IMG/VR virus record: IMGVR_UViG_3300025889_000422
Coordinates: 1 to 35,354 of that record
Reading direction: 5' to 3' (one strand)
Length of the DNA stretch: 35,354 nucleotides
DNA from: a virus
The notes under the pieces were generated by a model. It was given only the letters and a program-made list of their open reading frames with translations, had not been told where the DNA came from and did no database searches. This document shows, one piece after another, positions 18,911 to 29,235 of this stretch; within the stretch, counting starts at the first letter, position 1; every line of letters begins with the position of its first letter. Made by a program: the position numbers and the translations under genes.

Positions 18911-19089
18911 TAACTATTATTACCCGAAGATTTAAACCAAGTAAATCTTTCTGTTTCTTGTTTAAGTTCATCTAAAAATGTAGAGTTTAATTGTTCTGTA
19001 ATTAAGGCAATAGCTCTATTAATTTGTTTTTGGTTTGAAACATCATATTCTTCTTTTGGTTCCGGTATTCTTATTACTATCTTAGCCAT
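18910..19089 (-). CDS. Small conserved virion-module protein, 59 residues
   Basis: I start this gene at ATG 19089-19087, giving MAKIVIRIPEPKEEYDVSNQ, rather than at 19140. The shorter form begins in a TAATG overlap with the nozzle-like gene and has GGAAGAAG just upstream, while the extension would lie inside that gene. The rest (KQINRAIALITEQLNSTFLD and ETERFTWFKSSG) is helical. Small proteins of this pattern often follow the nozzle gene in marine podoviruses. Its function is unknown and may be in neck assembly. Confidence 0.7.
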   Translation of the reverse strand: MAKIVIRIPEPKEEYDVSNQKQINRAIALITEQLNSTFLDELKQETERFTWFKSSGNNS

Positions 19090-21026
19090 TATCTTCTTCC
19101 ATCTGGTTGAATATCTAATCTTATAGTCCCAAATCTCCAAGACTCTGATGCGCTATCATTTTCTATTTTTATATTAACAAATCTTCCTCGTGCTCTTGTA
19201 TCCTTTTTTTGAGTAGAAGGTGTAATTGTAAATGGACTTAAGGCTGTCGCTGTTTGAGAATCTGAAGGATATCTTTTAACTGCAAGTGTTACTTTTGCAT
19301 TACCTGCAAGATCTTTAAAATCAGGTATGAATCTTCTAACCGCAAGAAAAACTTCTCCAGCTAATGCATATGTTTGTCCTCTTTGTGCCTGTTGAAGATC
19401 ATAGTCATATGACTGTATAAAAGAGGTAACTGTTGTCGTACTACCGTCAGGATTAACTTGATCAGTACCTACCTCATGCTCGAATAATGTAGTCTGCCCG
19501 AGCCCTGATTCCCCAATAATGACTGGAAATGTCCCTGACGCACTATCATTAAATTTAGTTGCAATAGGGTTAGGATACACGGTTGCATCGATCCAGGTAG
19601 TTCTAGCTTCTGTTCCTATATACCAAACACCTCCGGGTATTTTGCCACTTTCACCATAATTAAATACAACATACTGATCATTATATTCTGAATTTGTTGA
19701 TGGATAATACCAAGTCACTTCTGTGTACTGATTATTTAAACCCGCATAAACCTGTTGTCCTTTTGTAGTGTCTGCTTGATCATAGACATAATCTTCAACA
19801 GTACATGGTAGAGATTTAACTGTACCATCAAATGCAAAGAAACCGTTAGTAGACATCCAGTAAGCTACACCATCTATTTCAACCGCTGCATTTTTACCAA
19901 TCAATCCACAGTTAGTACCAACTTGTTCGAATCCAAATGTAAAAGGTGCACCAATAAATTTCATGGTGTATAAAGCGTTGTCTGTCCAAACTAGAATAGT
20001 TTCTTTTGCTTTTAAGGCACCCATAATTTTAGTACCGTCTTGTAGTCTTTGTGTACCAGCAGAGTTAATAGCAGTTACTGTATAGTCATTTATATCTTCT
20101 TGTTCTGAAAATCTTATAAACATATCATCTTGTGTTGCAGATGAACCAATAGTTGTTTCTGTTCCAAGATGAATTAAGTGACGTGTTGTTGGTGATACTA
20201 ATGTTACCCTTGTTGCAGTTGGATTGTTTGTAGTTGCAAATCCAGATGTAGATGTAGCTGCTCTTATTGTTAAAGCATTTGTTGCACCTGCGTTCCATGT
20301 AAATGTTTTACCGTTTGCAATCGTCGCAACTAATACCTGACCAAAATTACTTAATGACCAAAGACCTGGTTCAAGTGTTATGTCGTCTGCAGATGATGCT
20401 TCTCCCCAGTTTCCCGTTCCCCAAGTATCTGTACCCCAACCATAACCATATGATTGTGCGGCAGGACCTACTGGCTCGTAAGGAATTAATTCTATACTAC
20501 CACCTGTAGACACCGTTCCTGTTGCATTAGAACTTTGTGTAACTGTAAATACAGAACTAGATGTAACAGAAGTTACTTGAAAATTTTTATCTTCAAAGTC
20601 AGAATCAGAATAACCTGTACCACCAGGTAAAGTTACATTATTAAATTGTACGATGTCACCTGCTACCAATCCATGAGCAGATTTAGTTACAGAACAAATA
20701 GCAGAACCAGATGTAGTTGCAATTGTTGCACTAGTTAAAGCTGTTTTAACAGGTGTGATGTCATATAACTGACCTTCAAAATAAATAAGTAAACATTTAT
20801 CTGTGCCGATAGCAACATATCTGTTACCGGATAAATCTACAAATGCAAACTCACGTCTTGCAACACCAACAATTGTATCTGTAATAAGTGATGACCAGCC
20901 ACCAACTTTTTCTGGCAGCATATATCTAAATCGTACGTTATCACAATCTACCCAACGCTGTTCAGCACCTACTGTTGTGTTTTGTTTATCAATTCCTGGA
21001 ACGAATTGAAAGTCAAGAAGAGCCAT
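19089..21026 (-). CDS. Tail nozzle / stabilisation protein (P22 gp10 or T7 gp12 type)
   Basis: This 645-residue protein begins MALLDFQFVPGIDKQNTTVG, with WVDCDNVRFRYMLPEKVGGW, an N-terminal pattern common in podovirus nozzle or tail stabilisation proteins. The body is beta-rich with repeated short strand units (ETILVWTDNALYTMKFIGAP; GVAYWMSTNGFFAFDGTV), consistent with a beta-propeller. It ends RFVNIKIENDSASESWRFGT. It would form the lower tail tube that opens on infection. The adaptor-like genes lie on the far side of the adhesin region. The assignment rests on N-terminal pattern, fold and position. Confidence 0.75.
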   Translation of the reverse strand: MALLDFQFVPGIDKQNTTVGAEQRWVDCDNVRFRYMLPEKVGGWSSLITDTIVGVARREFAFVDLSGNRYVAIGTDKCLLIYFEGQLYDITPVKTALTSATIATTSGSAICSVTKSAHGLVAGDIVQFNNVTLPGGTGYSDSDFEDKNFQVTSVTSSSVFTVTQSSNATGTVSTGGSIELIPYEPVGPAAQSYGYGWGTDTWGTGNWGEASSADDITLEPGLWSLSNFGQVLVATIANGKTFTWNAGATNALTIRAATSTSGFATTNNPTATRVTLVSPTTRHLIHLGTETTIGSSATQDDMFIRFSEQEDINDYTVTAINSAGTQRLQDGTKIMGALKAKETILVWTDNALYTMKFIGAPFTFGFEQVGTNCGLIGKNAAVEIDGVAYWMSTNGFFAFDGTVKSLPCTVEDYVYDQADTTKGQQVYAGLNNQYTEVTWYYPSTNSEYNDQYVVFNYGESGKIPGGVWYIGTEARTTWIDATVYPNPIATKFNDSASGTFPVIIGESGLGQTTLFEHEVGTDQVNPDGSTTTVTSFIQSYDYDLQQAQRGQTYALAGEVFLAVRRFIPDFKDLAGNAKVTLAVKRYPSDSQTATALSPFTITPSTQKKDTRARGRFVNIKIENDSASESWRFGTIRLDIQPDGRR

Positions 21027-21036
21027 AGTTCAGCCC

Positions 21037-21756
21037 CTATATTTTATCTTTGTATACCCAGCCTCTCGTTGCATTAACATATACTAACGTGAAAGCTGAA
21101 GCATTTGTTGAAACAACTAGATCATTACCTGCACCATTTATATTTGATCCATTTCTTCCGACTGTTAAGTTGTTAGATGCAAGGTTATTACCACTGTCTA
21201 TAAATGTAACCTCATTTCCTATTGCAGGGGATGCGGGTAAATTAATTGTAATAGCTGTACCAATACCACCCCCAGAAGTATCTATCAAAACCTGATCACC
21301 ATTAACTGTAGTATAAGTAGCTGAAGGTGTGTAGTATCCTTTAGTCTGTAGTTTACCTGTAATGTTTGTTCCATCAGAATATAAAACTGTAGTTGAACCT
21401 ACAGGTAAAGCAATTCCTGTACCTGAAACTGTTTTAACTGTTAGTGTATAATTAGATGCTGATCTTGCTGTTGCATCTTCTACAATAAACACTCTTTCAG
21501 CACCATCAGGCATAGTGACTGTTCTATTAGCAGCCAAAGTTCCTGTTAATTTATAATATAGATTTTTACCGTTTGCTGTTGCATGATTAGCTAAAGATAA
21601 AGCAACATCTGAACTAGCTACACTTAAAGATAAATAACCGCTAGCTGCTTGTTCTAAAATCTGTAAATTTGTATTTGTAATAGTACCCCAGGTTCCTGAT
21701 TTCTCCCCTGTGGTAATTAATTCTAGTTTTAAATCACTTGACGTACTTGATGCCAT
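21037..21756 (-). CDS. Tail fibre / surface virion protein, 239 residues
   Basis: The protein starts MASSTSSDLKLELITTGEKS, with GTWGTITNTNLQILEQAAS, a widespread N-terminal module in marine phage fibre proteins that probably docks it to the tail. The rest is Ser/Thr/Asn/Gly-rich beta structure (YLSLSVASSDVALSLANHAT; VTFIDSGNNLASNNLTVGRN), ending GWVYKDKI. No catalytic motif is visible. It lies between the nozzle-like gene and the repeat-bearing adhesins, which supports a receptor-binding or fibre-base role. Confidence 0.72.
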   Translation of the reverse strand: MASSTSSDLKLELITTGEKSGTWGTITNTNLQILEQAASGYLSLSVASSDVALSLANHATANGKNLYYKLTGTLAANRTVTMPDGAERVFIVEDATARSASNYTLTVKTVSGTGIALPVGSTTVLYSDGTNITGKLQTKGYYTPSATYTTVNGDQVLIDTSGGGIGTAITINLPASPAIGNEVTFIDSGNNLASNNLTVGRNGSNINGAGNDLVVSTNASAFTLVYVNATRGWVYKDKI

Positions 21757-21765
21757 ATATTTCTC

Positions 21766-22017
21766 CTACGGATTGTTCGGGTCAATAGGTACCCAGGTAC
21801 CCGTTGTTCCTGGAACTATCGGGTTCCAGTTTATCACATCTACCGTGTTAGTTGCAAGGTTTATTTGATTACCAGTTACAGTAACTGTTGTAGGAAAAGC
21901 AATAGTAGTATTACCCACTGAAATATTTAATCTGTTTCCTGTTACTGCTATGTTTAAATCCTGTATGAAAGGACTTGAAAAAGGTGCTGCTGAAAATGAC
22001 GTTGATCCAAATAACAT
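21766..22017 (-). CDS. Short paralogue of the 22-residue-repeat adhesin (2 repeats)
   Basis: This 83-residue protein has the same three-part build as its 283-residue neighbour: a start MLFGSTSFSAAPFSSPF, two 22-residue repeats (residues 25-46 and 47-68, each beginning VTGN), and a tail PGTTGTWVPIDPNNP. The shared head and tail show that the two are duplicates differing in repeat number. It is probably a beta-structured surface fibre part. It begins in a TAATG overlap with the longer paralogue. Confidence 0.72.
   Translation of the reverse strand: MLFGSTSFSAAPFSSPFIQDLNIAVTGNRLNISVGNTTIAFPTTVTVTGNQINLATNTVDVINWNPIVPGTTGTWVPIDPNNP
21814..21945 (-). repeat. Two 66-base (22-residue) repeat units in the short paralogue
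   Basis: Units VTGNRLNISVGN... (residues 25-46) and VTGNQINLATNT... (47-68) fit the consensus of the 11-unit array in the neighbouring gene. Confidence 0.75.
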
Positions 22018-22868
22018 TATGAGCTCCTACTTGTTTGAACTGGTGTCCATACCTGAGTTGCGCCCGGTAGTATACCATCCCATTTTTTGATATTAACAGA
22101 TGTTGTTCCAACATTTAACTGATTTCCTGTAGGTAAAGCGGTTGCTGCAGCAGTGATTGTCACTGTTCCTGTTGCAAGATTAGATTGTTTTCCTGTAACA
22201 CTAACCACTGCATTTGCTTTAGCAACTGCATTACCAATTGTTAAATTAGCTCTTGATCCAGTAACAGAGAAGTTTGCATCAGCAGAAATGGTGACATCAC
22301 CTGTACCAATATTTGCTTGTGATCCATCTGGTAAAACAACTGCCGCAGCAGTAGTTGTTACATTACCAAGAGATACATTTGCTCTGTTTCCAGTAACAGG
22401 AACTGTAATATTAACTTTACTCTCAGCATTACCGATTGATAAATTAACTCTTGATCCTGTAAGAGCGACTAATGCATTAGCAACAATAGTTGGGTTACCG
22501 GTTGTAATACTAATTTGATTACCATCTACACTGACATTTGCATCAGCAGTAACAGTTACATTACCAACTGTGAAATTAACTCGTTGTCCTGTAACACCAA
22601 CGTTTGCATCAGCAGTGATACCAACTGTGCCTGTGTTTAAATTAAATCGATTACCGGTTAATGGAACATCTACATTGATTGCAATACCAACTGTACCTGT
22701 TGAGATGTTGGATCTGTTTCCTGTTACACCAAAATTAGCATCAGCGGTAACTCCAACTGTGCCTGTATTAGTATTGATCCGTGATCCATTGACTTCTACG
22801 AATGCGTATGGAGGAATGCCTTGTGAAGCAAAGGCTGCTTCAGAGAAAGCCGTTGCACCGAAGTACAT
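22017..22868 (-). CDS. Adhesin with eleven 22-residue repeats
   Basis: The 283 residues comprise a head (MYFGATAFSEAAFASQG), eleven back-to-back repeats of exactly 22 residues from residue 26 to 267, and a tail (PGATQVWTPVQTSRSS). The repeat consensus is V-T-G-N-R-x-N-x-x-T-G-T-V-x-I-x-A-D-A-N-V-x. Regular Gly and Asn positions suggest stacked beta strands, such as a beta-helix or shaft. It is likely an extended surface fibre. Repeat number is a plausible way to change its length. It follows the 96-residue chaperone-like gene and overlaps its shorter paralogue by TAATG. Confidence 0.78.
   Translation of the reverse strand: MYFGATAFSEAAFASQGIPPYAFVEVNGSRINTNTGTVGVTADANFGVTGNRSNISTGTVGIAINVDVPLTGNRFNLNTGTVGITADANVGVTGQRVNFTVGNVTVTADANVSVDGNQISITTGNPTIVANALVALTGSRVNLSIGNAESKVNITVPVTGNRANVSLGNVTTTAAAVVLPDGSQANIGTGDVTISADANFSVTGSRANLTIGNAVAKANAVVSVTGKQSNLATGTVTITAAATALPTGNQLNVGTTSVNIKKWDGILPGATQVWTPVQTSRSS
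22068..22793 (-). repeat. Array of eleven 66-base coding repeats
   Basis: Eleven units of 22 codons lie in tandem without any length change. Units start VNGSRIN, VTGNRSN, LTGNRFN, VTGQRVN, VDGNQIS, LTGSRVN, VTGNRAN, PDGSQAN, VTGSRAN, VTGKQSN and PTGNQLN. The units are diverged in sequence but fixed in length, so the array is old or under strong structural constraint. Confidence 0.88.
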
Positions 22869-23668: not shown

Positions 23669-23962
23669 TTATCCTATCAACGCTTTAATTTCTGCGTCGT
23701 CCAATCCTAAATCTTTTAGCTTCTGTTTACCAGAGGCTTTTTTATCTATTGCTGCTTGTTCAGCATCTTTTAATTCTTGTATCTTTGCATTTACTTCAGC
23801 TTCTGTAGGTATAATAGCTGTTTCATCATTTAATTTTATATATTTGTATTGCATACGCTGAGAATTAGGAATTTTATTTCCATTATCATCATGCGTTTTC
23901 CAACCATACCATTGAGATTTATCTTTATTAAAATGTGCTAAAGCTAATTGTAAGTAATCCAT
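23669..23962 (-). CDS. Small protein with KQKLKDLGL-DAEIKALIG tail, copy 1
   Basis: This 97-residue protein starts MDYLQLALAHFNKDKSQWYG and ends with a helix AIDKKASGKQKLKDLGLDD plus AEIKALIG. The last 30 residues closely match those of the gene at 24518, also at DNA level, while the N-terminal halves differ. It is likely a fibre-associated assembly protein, given that it sits between two fibre genes. It starts in a TAATG... arrangement with its upstream neighbour's frame (shared base 23962). Confidence 0.68.
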   Translation of the reverse strand: MDYLQLALAHFNKDKSQWYGWKTHDDNGNKIPNSQRMQYKYIKLNDETAIIPTEAEVNAKIQELKDAEQAAIDKKASGKQKLKDLGLDDAEIKALIG

Positions 23963-24516
23963 TATTGACTATCTCCTAAACGAATAAATTTAAAACAAGT
24001 ATAATTTACATCTGTATCTCCTTGAATACTACCAGAACCAATACTTGTTGCTTCAAAGAAAAGTTTTACATTTGTTGTATTAGTTACATTTACAAAAGCA
24101 AAACAAGAAGCTTGTTCATGTTGGCTATCAGTAGAAGCTGAAACTACATTACTTACTGGGTCATAATTAGAGTTATCAGTTGTTACATGTATTCTTATAA
24201 TATGGTTATCTGCTGAAGCACCAGTACTATTCATTGTAGCAGTAACTTCATAAAGACCAGTTGAAGGAAAACTCCAATAACCAGAACTAACAGACATTCC
24301 TGTTCCTATTTTAGAAAAACTTGCATCATCAACTCTTTCTAAGTTAGAAGCTATTGGATTAGTATTAGAACTTAAATTTGCAGTTAATCTCCAAAAATCT
24401 GCTTCTGTAATTCCAGTATTAGGCAAACTGCTAGTAAATGTACCAGAACCGTTTGAGGTAATAATATTGTTTCCCCCTGAATCCTGAAGCTGGTCTACTT
24501 TTAAAATACTGCTCAT
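23962..24516 (-). CDS. Fibre head protein with QLQD N-terminal module, copy 1
   Basis: The 184 residues start MSSILKVDQLQDSGGNNIIT, matching the gene at 27606 (MASIIKANQLQDFGGNSIIG). The body is a C1q/TNF-like beta sandwich in appearance (GYWSFPSTGLYEVTATMNST; CFAFVNVTNTTNVKLFFEAT), ending TCFKFIRLGDSQ. It is probably a trimeric receptor-binding knob, inferred from fold-like pattern and context. AGGAG inside the RLGDS codons can serve as ribosome binding site for the next gene, which overlaps by TAATG. Confidence 0.72.
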   Translation of the reverse strand: MSSILKVDQLQDSGGNNIITSNGSGTFTSSLPNTGITEADFWRLTANLSSNTNPIASNLERVDDASFSKIGTGMSVSSGYWSFPSTGLYEVTATMNSTGASADNHIIRIHVTTDNSNYDPVSNVVSASTDSQHEQASCFAFVNVTNTTNVKLFFEATSIGSGSIQGDTDVNYTCFKFIRLGDSQ

Positions 24517-24517
24517 A

Positions 24518-24724
24518 TTATGCTCCTATTAATGCTTTTATTTCAGCATCAGTTAATCCTAAATCTTTTAATTTTTGTTTACCAGATGTTTTCTTATCTA
24601 TTGTTGCTTGTTCAGCATCTTCTCTAGTTTGTTTATCTATGACTGCTTGTTCTTCTTCAGCCTGTCTTGTAGTAATTTCATTTGCTGTTAAATCAATTAA
24701 TTTATTATCTAATAATTTTTTCAT
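24518..24724 (-). CDS. Small protein with KQKLKDLGL-DAEIKALIG tail, copy 2
   Basis: The 68-residue, highly charged helical protein begins MKKLLDNKLIDLTANEITTR and ends in the same segment as the gene at 23669 (DKKTSGKQKLKDLGLTDAEI). The N-terminal part differs, so only the C-terminal module was copied or exchanged. It begins in a TAATG overlap. Probably an assembly partner of the adjacent fibre protein. Confidence 0.66.
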   Translation of the reverse strand: MKKLLDNKLIDLTANEITTRQAEEEQAVIDKQTREDAEQATIDKKTSGKQKLKDLGLTDAEIKALIGA

Positions 24725-25356
24725 TATGATTTTTTAACTCCCAAAACATTAATTGTTACTTGTGCGAAATTTCCACTTGTGAAAAAAAATCTAATACCAT
24801 TATGTGTTTCTGTTGCATCATTTCTTCTTCCAGTAAAATTGGTTGCTCTATTAGCATCAGATGCATTTGCAAAAGATATAGTTCCATTTAATCTTGTTGG
24901 AATTGTATTTATTTGAGGATTTGTAAAATCTATACAAGCTGTAAAACCTTCGTTAGCAGCATTACCCATTACAGTTTGTCTGTTTAATGTAATATTATCT
25001 TGTCCTGTTGATGAACCATCATCACTTAAACCAATTTCTGATGCTCCAAAATCATAATTACTTGTTACATCTGATCCATTATTTTGAAATCTAGCTTTTA
25101 ATTGAACACTATCTGTTGCTGGTTTTCCTGTAATAAAAATTTTATACCAATCATAAGTAGATGTAATATATGTACTAGAAATTACAACTTCAGAAACATT
25201 TGTAGCTGATGCATTATATAATTCTACCAATCCACCAAAACCAGATTGAGTAGCACCCGTTCCTAATGTAATTGTCTCCCCAGATTGACCAAGTGTAATC
25301 GTCCCTGATCCAGAGCTAGTTGTTATTGTTCCTACTTTTAATGTTCCGTCTGCCAT
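24724..25356 (-). CDS. Fibre head protein with LGQSGETITLG N-terminal module
   Basis: The N-terminus (MADGTLKVGTITTSSGSGTI; LGQSGETITLGTGATQSG) matches those of the genes at 25356, 28124 and 28681. The rest differs: ELYNASATNVSEVVISSTYI, DWYKIFITGKPATDSVQLKA and THNGIRFFFTSGNFAQVTIN, ending VLGVKKS. This is a common marine phage fibre head of beta type. It appears that one attachment module carries different heads. Position in the block corresponds to the gene at 28124 in the second block. Confidence 0.72.
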   Translation of the reverse strand: MADGTLKVGTITTSSGSGTITLGQSGETITLGTGATQSGFGGLVELYNASATNVSEVVISSTYITSTYDWYKIFITGKPATDSVQLKARFQNNGSDVTSNYDFGASEIGLSDDGSSTGQDNITLNRQTVMGNAANEGFTACIDFTNPQINTIPTRLNGTISFANASDANRATNFTGRRNDATETHNGIRFFFTSGNFAQVTINVLGVKKS

Positions 25357-25892
25357 TATGCTCCTATCCTGTATCCATAAAAATATGTTTTTCCATCTGC
25401 CTCTAAGTTGACAGAACTTCCACTATCTTGAAACATTTTAAATGCTACTACATTACCAGCAGATAAATCTAAAACTGCATGAATGGTGCTAGAACCTTCA
25501 CCACTACTATTTTGATTGAAATTAGTCTGTCTTATTATAGTTCCTCCAACAGTTAAAAAACAAGCAAGTCTAGTTGCTGAACCAGAAGCATTTGATCTAA
25601 AAGAAGCACCTACCATATACTTACCAGCTTTTCCTGATGGAACTGTAAATTCTCCAGTAGATGTACTATAAGCATTATCCGTATCAAGTTCTTCAGTATC
25701 ACAAACTACTGTTACAGCAGAACTATTTGCAACACCTGTTTGAGCTGAACCTCTTTTAGCACTCCAAGCTGGACTCATATGTCCAGTAGCAGCTCCACTT
25801 TCAAATGTAACTGTAGAGGAGTTTGTAGAACCAATAGTTAAATTAGCTGTTCCTGATACTGTATCAATTGTATTTGTTTCTAACTTACTCAT
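25356..25892 (-). CDS. C1q-like fibre head protein, RIGA C-terminus
   Basis: This 178-residue protein starts MSKLETNTIDTVSGTANLTI and has a jelly-roll-like head: AWSAKRGSAQTGVANSSAVT, FTVPSGKAGKYMVGASFRSN and FYGYRIGA at the end. The FTVPSGKAGKYMVGASF block is the hallmark shared with the genes at 28124 and 28681. It is probably a trimeric knob. The codons for RIGA contain AGGATAGGAG, which forms the ribosome binding site for the next gene, overlapping by TAATG. Confidence 0.73.
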   Translation of the reverse strand: MSKLETNTIDTVSGTANLTIGSTNSSTVTFESGAATGHMSPAWSAKRGSAQTGVANSSAVTVVCDTEELDTDNAYSTSTGEFTVPSGKAGKYMVGASFRSNASGSATRLACFLTVGGTIIRQTNFNQNSSGEGSSTIHAVLDLSAGNVVAFKMFQDSGSSVNLEADGKTYFYGYRIGA

Positions 25893-26350
25893 TATAAAAT
25901 TACGAATGTACTCCCTGATGGAATCGTTATTGTGCCTGAAACTGTAACGGGTCCAACTAATGCTCCATTGTTTGAACCTGTCATATTAATATTTGTCCAA
26001 GTTTGATTGTTCTTTACAAAAAAAGTTGAACTTAAAGAACCTGCACTGACTGTTGAATCTGTTGGAGTTCCAATATCAAATACATCACCTAATACTGTTC
26101 CGAAAAAAGTATCTGAACTTGCAGGATTTGATGTGAAAGTAATCTGACTTCCAGATATTGTAAATGCGGATTGCGGCTCTTGGACAACTCCTGAAATAGA
26201 GATTATACAATTAGCTTCGTTTCCAGGAGACACAGCTGTGCCGTTAACCGTTAAGTTAAACGGTCCTGGTGTTGATCCAGTGAATGACCCTGATATGTCA
26301 TCCAGTATTTGATACGCTCCTGTTTGAGGAGCTTTTCCAACGTAAGCCAA
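25892..26350 (-). CDS. Fibre base protein of the MAYxGxAP type, copy 1
   Basis: The 152 residues begin MAYVGKAPQTGAYQILDDIS and contain IISISGVVQEPQSAFTISGS and a C-terminal strand pair GPVTVSGTITIPSGSTFVIL. The same plan is seen in the gene at 29237 (MAYLGNAPK, QDPFSAYSISGG, GPVSFTATVTVQG). The C-terminus may form a short beta-helix cap that docks other heads. It is first in the left-hand block of duplicated genes. Function inferred from context and composition. Confidence 0.72.
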   Translation of the reverse strand: MAYVGKAPQTGAYQILDDISGSFTGSTPGPFNLTVNGTAVSPGNEANCIISISGVVQEPQSAFTISGSQITFTSNPASSDTFFGTVLGDVFDIGTPTDSTVSAGSLSSTFFVKNNQTWTNINMTGSNNGALVGPVTVSGTITIPSGSTFVIL

Positions 26351-26362
26351 TTGTTATTCTCC

Positions 26363-26713
26363 TTATTCAGTTGGGATCGGGTTTGCAGTCTTGACAGCTT
26401 CTACATGGTCTTTCCATGTAGTAGTACCATTAACATTGTCGTGGTACTGCATGTCGAGCTGTGAACCTAGATCACCGTAGGCGTTTTTTCTTGTAGCTCT
26501 TACTGCATTTTGTCTCTCTTCGAGATCTGCAGCAGAATCTACAGCGTTCAGTTGCTCATCAGTCGGTTTCGCTACACCTGACACATTCCATGTCTTGATG
26601 TAAGGGCCCTGACCGTTTGAGTCGTCCTGAAGCAAAACGTCAGTCATAAAGTCTACATTTGCTACGCCGTTGTTAGCGCAGTAAGTTTTGACTTTGCTTG
26701 ATAGTGATGCCAT
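26363..26713 (-). CDS. XkdW-like small tail assembly protein
   Basis: This 116-residue, mostly helical protein has SSKVKTYCANNGVANVDFMT, then KPTDEQLNAVDSAADLEERQ and YGDLGSQLDMQYHDNVNGTT followed by TWKDHVEAVKTANP. The last part resembles the XkdW type protein found next to tail fibre genes. It separates the two duplicated adhesin blocks and is not itself duplicated. Probably an assembly or structural accessory protein. It has a 27-base gap upstream with GGAG at a suitable distance. Confidence 0.68.
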   Translation of the reverse strand: MASLSSKVKTYCANNGVANVDFMTDVLLQDDSNGQGPYIKTWNVSGVAKPTDEQLNAVDSAADLEERQNAVRATRKNAYGDLGSQLDMQYHDNVNGTTTWKDHVEAVKTANPIPTE

Positions 26714-26740
26714 AGTTTTTGTCTCCTTTGTTATCTTATA

Positions 26741-27070
26741 TTATGGTTTGATTGGAAATACAACAGCATTTGCTTGTTCTACTGTCGTAATTCCTTCTGT
26801 TATATCTCTCAATTCCTGTCTGTAAGTAGTCATATCTGCTGACATTGTATTGTCAGACAATGCATGAAAGTCTGTGTCTTGTAGTAATTGATTTCTTTTT
26901 GATCTTAAATTTTGCATAGTGTTGTCTAATTCTACAGCTGGGAACTGTGCTTCTATGTCAGCTACTGGTATAGGTGTTGTTCCATTGTGCCAAGTTATTT
27001 GGTTAATGTCATCTGCATTTACAGAAAATTCTGCATTTAGATTTATTTTTTTAATTGCTTTTTCAATCAT
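26741..27070 (-). CDS. Tail-fibre assembly/chaperone-like small protein, copy 2
   Basis: The 109 residues begin MIEKAIKKINLNAEFSVNAD and include ITWHNGTTPIPVADIEAQFP, then a helical tail (NTMQNLRSKRNQLLQDTDFH). It is paralogous to the gene at 22872 and shares a 36-base identical DNA segment with it. As there, it follows a VLQVV-type fibre gene through a TAATG overlap. The C-terminal half has diverged completely, perhaps because it matches a different partner. Confidence 0.72.
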   Translation of the reverse strand: MIEKAIKKINLNAEFSVNADDINQITWHNGTTPIPVADIEAQFPAVELDNTMQNLRSKRNQLLQDTDFHALSDNTMSADMTTYRQELRDITEGITTVEQANAVVFPIKP

Positions 27071-27603
27071 TATCCAGATACCTCCATAACAATTATGCTA
27101 CTTGCACTTCTTCCACCTTCAGAAGCACTATCAACATCTGCTTGAGTTCTATTTATATAAAAAGAACCATTGCCATCTGTTTCGCCTTGTAATTTATACG
27201 TCTGTTGACTAGTACTTGCTGGACTATCTAGGTAATTTAAAAACCCCATAAATGCAGTTTCTTGACCAGCATTTGTTGCACCATTAAAATAATCATCTGC
27301 TGCAAAATAAGCAACTCTATGTCTATTACCAGCAGCGGCTCCTACATATGTAGATGTATTTCCACCAGATAATTGAAATTTTGGAGAAGCATTTATATCT
27401 GCTGACCAACAAAAACTAGCTGTTACTAATATTTTATTTGATGATGAAGATGGAGTTATGTTTACAGATAAATTAGATATATCTACCATGCTTTGGCTTG
27501 AACTACTTGTAGTATCTGTTTTAATTGCTTGAACAACTTGCAAAACACTACCAGCGGGTAGACCTGTAATTAAATTTTTTCCATCTATTTTACTTAATGC
27601 CAT
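27070..27603 (-). CDS. Tail fibre protein of the VLQVV type, copy 2
   Basis: The protein of 177 residues starts MALSKIDGKNLITGLPAGSV with LQVVQAIKTDT. A beta-sandwich head follows (VDISNLSVNITPSSSSNKIL; TAFMGFLNYLDSPAST), ending RSASSIIVMEVSG. The N-terminal pattern and the downstream small gene match the pair at 23162/22872. This head type with PSSSSNKILV is widespread in marine phages as a fibre domain. Confidence 0.73.
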   Translation of the reverse strand: MALSKIDGKNLITGLPAGSVLQVVQAIKTDTTSSSSQSMVDISNLSVNITPSSSSNKILVTASFCWSADINASPKFQLSGGNTSTYVGAAAGNRHRVAYFAADDYFNGATNAGQETAFMGFLNYLDSPASTSQQTYKLQGETDGNGSFYINRTQADVDSASEGGRSASSIIVMEVSG

Positions 27604-27605
27604 AA

Positions 27606-28121
27606 TTAACTTCCTATCCTTTCAGCTGCAAAGTTACTTTCAGTTCCATTTTCTCCAAGTAAAACTTTACTACTTCCTGCACTTTGTTTGAAAAATGCTT
27701 CCACATAATCGTCTGCATCTAAATACATAACGACTTCTATTTGTTGTGTTTGATAATTACTAAATGGATAACCATTTGCTGTAAAAGCATAAGAACTTCC
27801 ATTTTTATAAATAGCTACATTTCCAAAATTTGTATCAGTACACTGTAAATATCCATGTGCTGAAACTCTATAATAACCAGCTACTCCTGGATTAAAACGA
27901 TAGTTAGTTGTAGAATCAAATTTTCCATTACTATCAAATATTTCAGTGTCAAAATTTCCTTTAGTCCAAGTATCATTTGAAAGAGTTTGATTTGCACTTA
28001 ATTTAGCAGAAAAAGCAGGATAGTTAGTCTTCTGCGTAGTAAGATTACCCGCACCATCAGATCCGATAATGCTGTTACCGCCAAAGTCCTGTAGTTGATT
28101 TGCTTTTATAATTGATGCCAT
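27606..28121 (-). CDS. Fibre head protein with QLQD N-terminal module, copy 2
   Basis: The 171 residues start MASIIKANQLQDFGGNSIIG, then YPAFSAKLSANQTLSNDTWT, a C1q-like core (YRFNPGVAGYYRVSAHGYLQ), and end ESNFAAERIGS. It links two families: its N-terminal module matches the gene at 23962, while its head matches those at 28124 and 28681. RIGS is encoded by AGGATAGGAAGT, again a ribosome binding site for the next ATG 3 bases beyond its stop. Probably a receptor-binding knob. Confidence 0.74.
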   Translation of the reverse strand: MASIIKANQLQDFGGNSIIGSDGAGNLTTQKTNYPAFSAKLSANQTLSNDTWTKGNFDTEIFDSNGKFDSTTNYRFNPGVAGYYRVSAHGYLQCTDTNFGNVAIYKNGSSYAFTANGYPFSNYQTQQIEVVMYLDADDYVEAFFKQSAGSSKVLLGENGTESNFAAERIGS

Positions 28122-28123
28122 AA

Positions 28124-28681
28124 TTATGATCCTATCCTGTATGCACCGAAGTATGAATTAGCAACAAATATACCACCAGTGCTATCTCCACTTTCCGTAA
28201 AACCAAAAATTTCTATGTAATCTCCAACAGATAAATCTATTGTTGCTGATATTCCTACTGTTTGATTTATTGGTTGGGATGAATTGTTATTATAATTTCC
28301 TTGATTTTTATAGTCACTTCCATTTTTATAAATATAAATTTTTGATTGAAATAGTTTATAAAAACTACCACTCTGTGTTTGTTGAGTACCTCTTGCATAT
28401 ATAAAATATTTACCAGCTTTTCCACTAGGAACTGTAAATCGATAATTTGTAGAATTATCATAAACAGAGTCTGTGTCAAATCTCTCTGTGTTAAATTGCA
28501 TTTTAGTTATAGTAGTATTTGAAATATTTTGATTAGCTGACAAATACGTTTCAAAAGCAGGATAGTTTAAATTACTTTGCACAACACCTGAACCTAGAGT
28601 AAACGTATCTCCAGAACTACCCAGGGTTACTGTGCCGTTGTCAGCGATTGGTTCTATATTTGTTGTTTTAATTGTTCCCAT
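28124..28681 (-). CDS. C1q-like fibre head protein, RIGS C-terminus (a)
   Basis: This 185-residue protein starts MGTIKTTNIEPIADNGTVTL with LGSSGDTFTLGSGVVQS, then YPAFETYLSANQNISNTTIT, YRFTVPSGKAGKYFIYARGT and ends SYFGAYRIGS. It is closely paralogous to the next upstream gene at 28681 (same plan, same end), so the two are tandem duplicates. Gly- and Asn-rich insertions (YKNQGNYNNNSSQPINQT) differ and may be exposed loops that meet the receptor. Confidence 0.75.
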   Translation of the reverse strand: MGTIKTTNIEPIADNGTVTLGSSGDTFTLGSGVVQSNLNYPAFETYLSANQNISNTTITKMQFNTERFDTDSVYDNSTNYRFTVPSGKAGKYFIYARGTQQTQSGSFYKLFQSKIYIYKNGSDYKNQGNYNNNSSQPINQTVGISATIDLSVGDYIEIFGFTESGDSTGGIFVANSYFGAYRIGS

Positions 28682-29235
28682 TATGATCCTATCCTGTATG
28701 CTCCAAATAATGTTTTTCTACTTGGTGTAGTTCCAAAAAAATCTGGGTTACCACTTGTGTCATCTATTTGTCCAAAACCCTCTAAATAATCTGATGATCC
28801 ATTCATATCTACAGTTAGAGTTGCGTTAACAGTACAAAAAGAACCTAAAGTATTTCCTCTAGCATCAATTTTTGATTGACTAATCTCTGACCCATTTTTG
28901 TATATAAATAAATTTAACTGATCTAAATTAGCACCTGCAATTGTATCTGAACCTAAAACTGCATAAACAAAATACTTTCCTGCTACTGTTGGGGTAAATC
29001 TATAGTTAGTAGAATTATCATAACAATTATCGGTATCAAAAACTTCAGAATTAAATTGTATTTTTGTAGTGGTATTATCCGTTACAGTTTGATTAGAACT
29101 TAAAAATGCTTCAAAAGCTGGATATAAAAAACTTGGTTTAGCTCCCGTTGCAGTAGTAATAGTATCCCCAGAGCTACCTATCTCTAAACTAGTTCCTGAT
29201 TGTGGGTCTATTTTATCTACAAATAATGTTGCCAT
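28681..29235 (-). CDS. C1q-like fibre head protein, RIGS C-terminus (b)
   Basis: The 184 residues start MATLFVDKIDPQSGTSLEIG with SSGDTITTATGAKPS, then YPAFEAFLSSNQTVTDNTTT, YRFTPTVAGKYFVYAVLGSD, and end TLFGAYRIGS. It shares N-terminal module and head with the gene at 28124. The AGGATAGGATCATAATG junction gives ribosome binding site, last codons, stop and next start in one short sequence. Likely one of several alternative or co-assembled knobs on the tail. Confidence 0.75.
   Translation of the reverse strand: MATLFVDKIDPQSGTSLEIGSSGDTITTATGAKPSFLYPAFEAFLSSNQTVTDNTTTKIQFNSEVFDTDNCYDNSTNYRFTPTVAGKYFVYAVLGSDTIAGANLDQLNLFIYKNGSEISQSKIDARGNTLGSFCTVNATLTVDMNGSSDYLEGFGQIDDTSGNPDFFGTTPSRKTLFGAYRIGS

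What the first reader, a model, noticed from the sequence alone, without database searches (positions are those of the whole stretch)
22017..22868. Paralogous repeat adhesins with 11 and 2 units of exactly 22 residues
The genes at 22017-22868 and 21766-22017 share the same head (M-x-FG-x-T-x-F) and tail (W-x-x-I-x-PG-x-T), but one holds eleven and the other two 22-residue repeats. All units keep the exact length although their sequences have diverged. This suggests a stacked beta structure whose length sets fibre reach, and a history of repeat gain or loss.
Basis: partly seen in the sequence, partly recalled or inferred. Interest (0 to 1): 0.65.

Follow-up and report, generated by a model that had tools for sequence, protein, structure and literature searches.

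The report
Variable-length repeat proteins in phage tails
Two neighbouring genes of an ocean phage related to those that infect SAR11 bacteria encode a long and a short version of one beta-rich repeat protein, probably a tail fibre part, and relatives carry from 2 to 22 copies of the same 22-residue unit between the same two end pieces.

Summary
Window 22017-22868 (-, 283 aa) is a 23-aa head, eleven 22-aa units and a W..I.PG..Q.W tail; 21766-22017 (-, 83 aa) is the same head and tail around two units. The period is far above chance. In relatives the number varies: long gene 8, 9, 10 or 11, short gene 2 or 3, as adjacent pairs. Distant relatives with the same plan carry up to 22 units, and 93% of 1,868 unit spacings are exactly 22. 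Known phages carry unannotated members: Pelagibacter phages HTVC023P gp68 and HTVC027P gp68, 023Pt_psg01, DSL-LC04. In 63 of 78 distant loci the next gene is the same tail-fibre gene. No Pfam, PHROGs, NCBIfam or solved-structure match. AlphaFold2 gives an all-beta repeat but at low confidence (pLDDT 54). Counts change by mosaic recombination between diverged alleles, not by slippage: no unit pair in 112 long genes reaches 90% DNA identity. Most likely it is a modular, probably oligomeric beta shaft of a tail adhesion fibre. Adhesion, trimer state and 'length sets reach' remain untested.

The parts
22017..22868 (-). long repeat protein, 283 aa: head + 11 x 22 aa + tail
22800..22868 (-). head of the long protein (M-x-FG-x-T-x-F...), residues 1-23
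   Evidence: M1, F3, G4, T6, F8, F13 invariant in 24 relatives
22074..22799 (-). eleven 22-aa units, residues 24-265; Gly at unit positions 5 and 13
22020..22073 (-). tail of the long protein (..I.PG..Q.W), residues 266-283; the tail Trp 263 lies at the end of unit 11
   Evidence: W263 and W274 invariant
21766..22017 (-). short repeat protein, 83 aa: same head and tail around 2 units; start codon overlaps the long gene's stop by one base
21037..21756 (-). tail fibre protein, 239 aa (phrog_31104; residues 173-233 are 54% identical to a tail-fibre-like protein of Synechococcus phage S-SSM7); conserved next neighbour of the repeat genes
19089..21026 (-). tail hub / 'phage stabilization' protein, 645 aa (phrog_3287), 66% identical to 023Pt_psg01

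Best explanation
The two genes encode structural parts of the phage's tail adhesion apparatus. Each protein is a rod built of a 22-residue beta unit: a long strand with every other residue hydrophobic (unit positions 14 to 4 of the next unit), a Gly-Asn turn (5-6), a short strand (7-12) and a second Gly-Asn turn (13-14). Units stack, so unit number should set rod length. The conserved N-terminal FG/F piece and the C-terminal Trp piece cap the rod and are the likely docking ends, because they stay constant while unit number changes. The long and short versions are probably made from one coupled transcript and most likely sit at different places of one fibre assembly with the tail fibre encoded next to them. 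Unit number changes over evolution when diverged alleles recombine inside the array, which works because all units share one register. Shown: the units, their conservation, varying counts, mosaic breakpoints, gene neighbourhood. Inferred: virion location, oligomer state, stacking geometry, docking role and reach.
For: Exact 22-aa periodicity. 758 distinct units of the window's clade show hydrophobic residues at 1, 3, 8, 10, 15, 17 and Gly at 5 (96%) and 13 (82%); 586 units of distant relatives keep the same two glycines (96%, 90%). Counts vary with constant ends: 8-11 long, 2-3 short, 5-22 in distant relatives. Mosaicism: window and L010 are 98-100% identical over the first 700 bases of the aligned stretch and then fall to 40-93%, while L010 and L039 do the reverse, 44-83% and then 95-100% near the end of the gene; L268 (9 units) and L272 (8 units) share a 902-base downstream stretch at 94% but differ in unit content. 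The tail-fibre gene lies within 3 kb downstream in 63 of 78 distant loci and is the next gene in isolates HTVC023P, HTVC027P and in 023Pt_psg01. The region upstream holds C1q-type tips and a tail assembly chaperone above Pfam cut-offs and XkdW. AlphaFold2 models show about three strands per unit.
Against: Both structure models are poor (pLDDT 48 and 54, pTM 0.41 and 0.45). No direct evidence that the protein is in the virion. Foldseek against PDB found nothing significant (best E 0.55). The count-versus-fibre-size correlation does not survive correction for relatedness. In the window's clade counts cluster on 11 and 2, so length may be under narrow constraint rather than tuned.
Confidence: 0.6

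Rival explanations
1. Single-chain beta-solenoid adhesin: each 22-aa unit is one coil of a monomeric beta-helix, and the side faces, not the tip, bind a glycan or surface polymer.
For: The models resemble beta-helices: second-look Z 17.4 to a beta-helical antifreeze protein and 16.2 to tapirin; three strands and three turns per unit; indels fall at turn-like sites.
Against: Model confidence is low; real beta-solenoids are often predicted well from one chain; high Z is common among repeat proteins, as the tool notes; Foldseek E 0.55 or worse.
Confidence: 0.25
2. Central needle or spike rather than lateral fibre: an intertwined three-stranded beta-helix like the C-terminal needle of T4 gp5.
For: Profile search of PDB sequences gives T4 gp5 beta-helix residues 444-542 as one of the two best families, E 0.056; the tail hub gene is two genes away.
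Against: E 0.056 is not significant; the other top hit is a spider silk protein; the unit is 22 residues with Gly spacings 8 and 14; two paralogues of different length per phage are not expected of a single needle.
Confidence: 0.1
3. Phage-encoded curli-like fibre secreted from the infected cell; HTVC023P-type phages are reported to carry CsgA/B curli repeat genes (PMC9599517).
For: Similar repeat length (general knowledge of CsgA); the published curli genes are from the same phage group.
Against: No CsgG (PF03783) or Curlin repeat (PF07012) in the window, with working controls; no curlin hit in the proteins; the genes lie in the tail module, not in a CsgF/CsgG cluster.
Confidence: 0.03

Closest known systems
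HTVC023P gp68 (QGZ17697), HTVC027P gp68 (QGZ17849), 023Pt_psg01 URG13121, DSL-LC04 WJZ48131, MW202675 UOF80312 (all 'hypothetical protein')
   Same: same 22-aa unit with the two glycines, aromatic head and Trp tail; in the first four the tail-fibre gene is the next gene
   Different: no long/short pair was seen next to the fibre gene; 5-9 recognisable units; HTVC027P gp68 is very divergent, with W/G-rich blocks between units
C-terminal beta-helix of T4 gp5
   Same: Gly/Val-rich repeats of beta strands, phage tail
   Different: short octapeptide repeat (general knowledge of T4 gp5) versus 22; profile match only E 0.056
Triple beta-spiral fibre shafts (adenovirus fibre, PRD1 P5, from general knowledge)
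   Same: extended strand, Gly/Pro turn, second strand; unit number sets shaft length
   Different: different unit length; not testable here without a trimer model
Curli CsgA repeats
   Same: about 22-residue beta repeats
   Different: no curlin HMM hit, no secretion genes in the window

Membership tests
22-aa repeat family of aquatic phages (defined here; members in HTVC023P-type phages) | tandem 22-aa units with Gly at positions 5 and 13 and hydrophobic 1, 3, 15, 17 | tested here: met
22-aa repeat family of aquatic phages (defined here; members in HTVC023P-type phages) | head with FG/F or W-G motif and tail with two Trp | tested here: met
   invariant F3, G4, F8, W263, W274 in the window's clade; distant heads by inspection
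22-aa repeat family of aquatic phages (defined here; members in HTVC023P-type phages) | phrog_31104-type tail-fibre gene downstream | tested here: met
   window 21037-21756; 63 of 78 distant loci
Phage tail fibre shaft | encoded in the tail module next to fibre and hub genes | tested here: met
Phage tail fibre shaft | present in the virion | not testable with these tools
   no proteomics found in the papers searched
Phage tail fibre shaft | trimeric elongated beta structure | not testable with these tools
   no multimer prediction; monomer models all-beta but pLDDT 48-54
Curli CsgA/B | Curlin_rpt match and CsgG partner gene | tested here: not met
   CsgF not searched; the window is a fragment, so partner genes elsewhere are not excluded
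T4 gp5-type triple-stranded beta-helix | sequence or fold match to gp5 C-terminal domain | tested here: inconclusive
   E 0.056; not among Foldseek's listed PDB matches
Monomeric beta-solenoid adhesins (tapirin and similar) | significant fold match | tested here: inconclusive
   VIA Z 13-17 on a low-confidence model; Foldseek E above 0.5

The most novel reading that the evidence does not exclude
A new fibre fold: a 22-residue beta unit, not matched to any solved structure, that aquatic phages use as a length-adjustable shaft, with a long and a short paralogue forming two segments of one fibre and with unit number changed by in-register recombination between alleles to match the reach of the tail fibre.
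Probability: 0.2. Interest if true: 0.7.

Novelty: new member of a known kind. Interest (0 to 1): 0.42.

Why it matters
[quoted passage not shown] This repeat family sits beside their tail-fibre gene, is present in both cultured members, and has no entry in Pfam, PHROGs or NCBIfam. It gives named targets (HTVC023P gp68, HTVC027P gp68) for virion proteomics and structure work. Its natural series of lengths, from 2 to 22 units between constant ends, would allow a direct test of whether repeat number sets fibre length in phages.

Tried and rejected
Slippage as the cause of count change: rejected, because no unit pair in 112 long genes of the window's clade reaches 90% DNA identity (2 of 81 in distant relatives). 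Curli: rejected. A remembered similarity to repeat proteins of marine cyanomyoviruses: a consensus query found no match in the phage collection. Fold searches: Foldseek PDB gave no significant match; BFVD best E 2.6e-4, uncharacterised uncultured-phage proteins, not followed up. Counts of '6' and four of the five counts of '10' are undercounts caused by an insertion in one unit or in the last unit (two of the four judged by protein length); they are 8 and 11, and the tree's count of 12 changes for the long gene is therefore too high. Literature searches found no description of the repeat.

Full report
What is there. The ORFs at 22017-22868 (-, 283 aa) and 21766-22017 (-, 83 aa) are real and share one plan. 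The long one is a 23-aa head, eleven units of exactly 22 aa and an 18-aa tail; the short one is a 22-aa head, two units and a 17-aa tail. Self-identity at lags 22 and 44 is 0.40, against at most 0.20 in 2,000 shuffles. Units are diverged, 18-68% in protein and 32-70% in DNA. Start and stop overlap as TAATG.

What phage it is. The window is a 35,354-base virus record, probably a fragment. The 645-aa hub is 66% identical to phage 023Pt_psg01 and 47% to Pelagibacter phages HTVC023P and HTVC027P. These belong to the HTVC023P type, whose genomes average about 58.8 kb (PMC9599517). The host itself is not shown.

Relatives and counts. A protein search of IMG/VR gave 72 loci, and a profile search at least 484. 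Pairs (long, short) in distinct loci, after correcting undercounts from insertions, are (11,2) about 72, (8,2) 18, (9,3) 9, (9,2) 4, (11,3) 4 and (10,2) 1. Loss or gain is in whole units: the 8-unit clade lacks exactly 66 residues near the N-terminus, and L045 lacks about one unit there. Head and tail stay constant.

A wider family. DSL-LC04, found through the repeat, carries a 376-aa relative, and its own search brought 80 more loci. With them, 303 distinct ORFs have 2 to 22 units, and 1,734 of 1,868 spacings are exactly 22. The unit is the same: Gly at positions 5 and 13, hydrophobic residues at 1, 3, 15 and 17. Heads vary from MYFGATAF to MLGFYPLASAPIAD and W-G-rich forms; tails keep W..I/V..W. 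HTVC027P gp68 is a divergent member in a cultured phage. Nothing in Pfam, PHROGs or NCBIfam describes these proteins.

Neighbourhood. The next gene, 21037-21756, is a tail fibre: its N-terminal half matches phrog_31104 and residues 173-233 are 54% identical to the end of a tail-fibre-like protein of Synechococcus phage S-SSM7. In 63 of 78 distant loci it lies within 3 kb downstream of the repeat gene, although the repeat proteins themselves are then only about 25-35% identical to the window's. Upstream lie an XkdW-like gene, a tail assembly chaperone and C1q-type domains over Pfam's cut-off. This is the basis for placing the repeat proteins in the tail.

How the number changes. On a tree of the neighbouring tail-fibre protein, counts are interleaved, which fits repeated change or exchange of the repeat gene. 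DNA comparison shows exchange inside the gene: the window and L010 are 98-100% identical over the first 700 bases of the aligned stretch and then diverge, while L010 and L039 are diverged first and 95-100% identical near the end. L268 and L272 share the last unit, the short gene and the downstream DNA at 94% but have 9 and 8 units of different sequence. No unit pair within the 112 long genes is 90% identical, so slippage or recent tandem duplication is not the source.

Structure. Two AlphaFold2 runs (24 and 51 sequences) gave all-beta models with about three strands per unit but low confidence, pLDDT 48 and 54. Foldseek against the PDB gave nothing significant. A second look placed the model near beta-helices, Z up to 17.4, which for a repeat protein and a poor model is only a hint. 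A profile search of PDB sequences touched the T4 gp5 beta-helix at E 0.056, not significant. Poor single-chain confidence is what an intertwined oligomer would give, but it does not prove one.

Reach. If unit number sets reach, it might track the size of the tail fibre. Among 26 distant loci it does (rho 0.53, p 0.005), but not after correction for relatedness (r 0.32, p 0.11). In the window's clade the fibre protein is almost always 239 aa while counts vary. This idea is open.

Verdict. It is an uncatalogued, widespread family of a known kind of thing: repeat-built phage fibre proteins. Adhesin activity, trimer state and reach are unproven.

Noticed in passing
window 23962-29235 (-): Several paralogous small genes with C1q-type domains (25356-25892 and 27606-28121 above Pfam's cut-off, 28681-29235 weak; 23962-24516 and 28124-28681 similar by eye), interleaved with small XkdW-like or tail-assembly-chaperone genes (26363-26713, 26741-27070): an array of possible tail tips.
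   Followed up: partly
L156, 164-aa ORF: A zinc-ribbon-like protein ending in two 22-aa units of this family, so the unit also occurs attached to other domains.
   Followed up: no
window 20496-20738 (-): The hub protein carries a stretch at residues 97-177 that matches a separate family (phrog_28581, E 8e-6), perhaps an inserted domain.
   Followed up: no
L305:2980-3945 (HTVC027P gp68): Units are interrupted by W/G-rich blocks (WGxxxWG), which look like the head motif of other members used internally.
   Followed up: no
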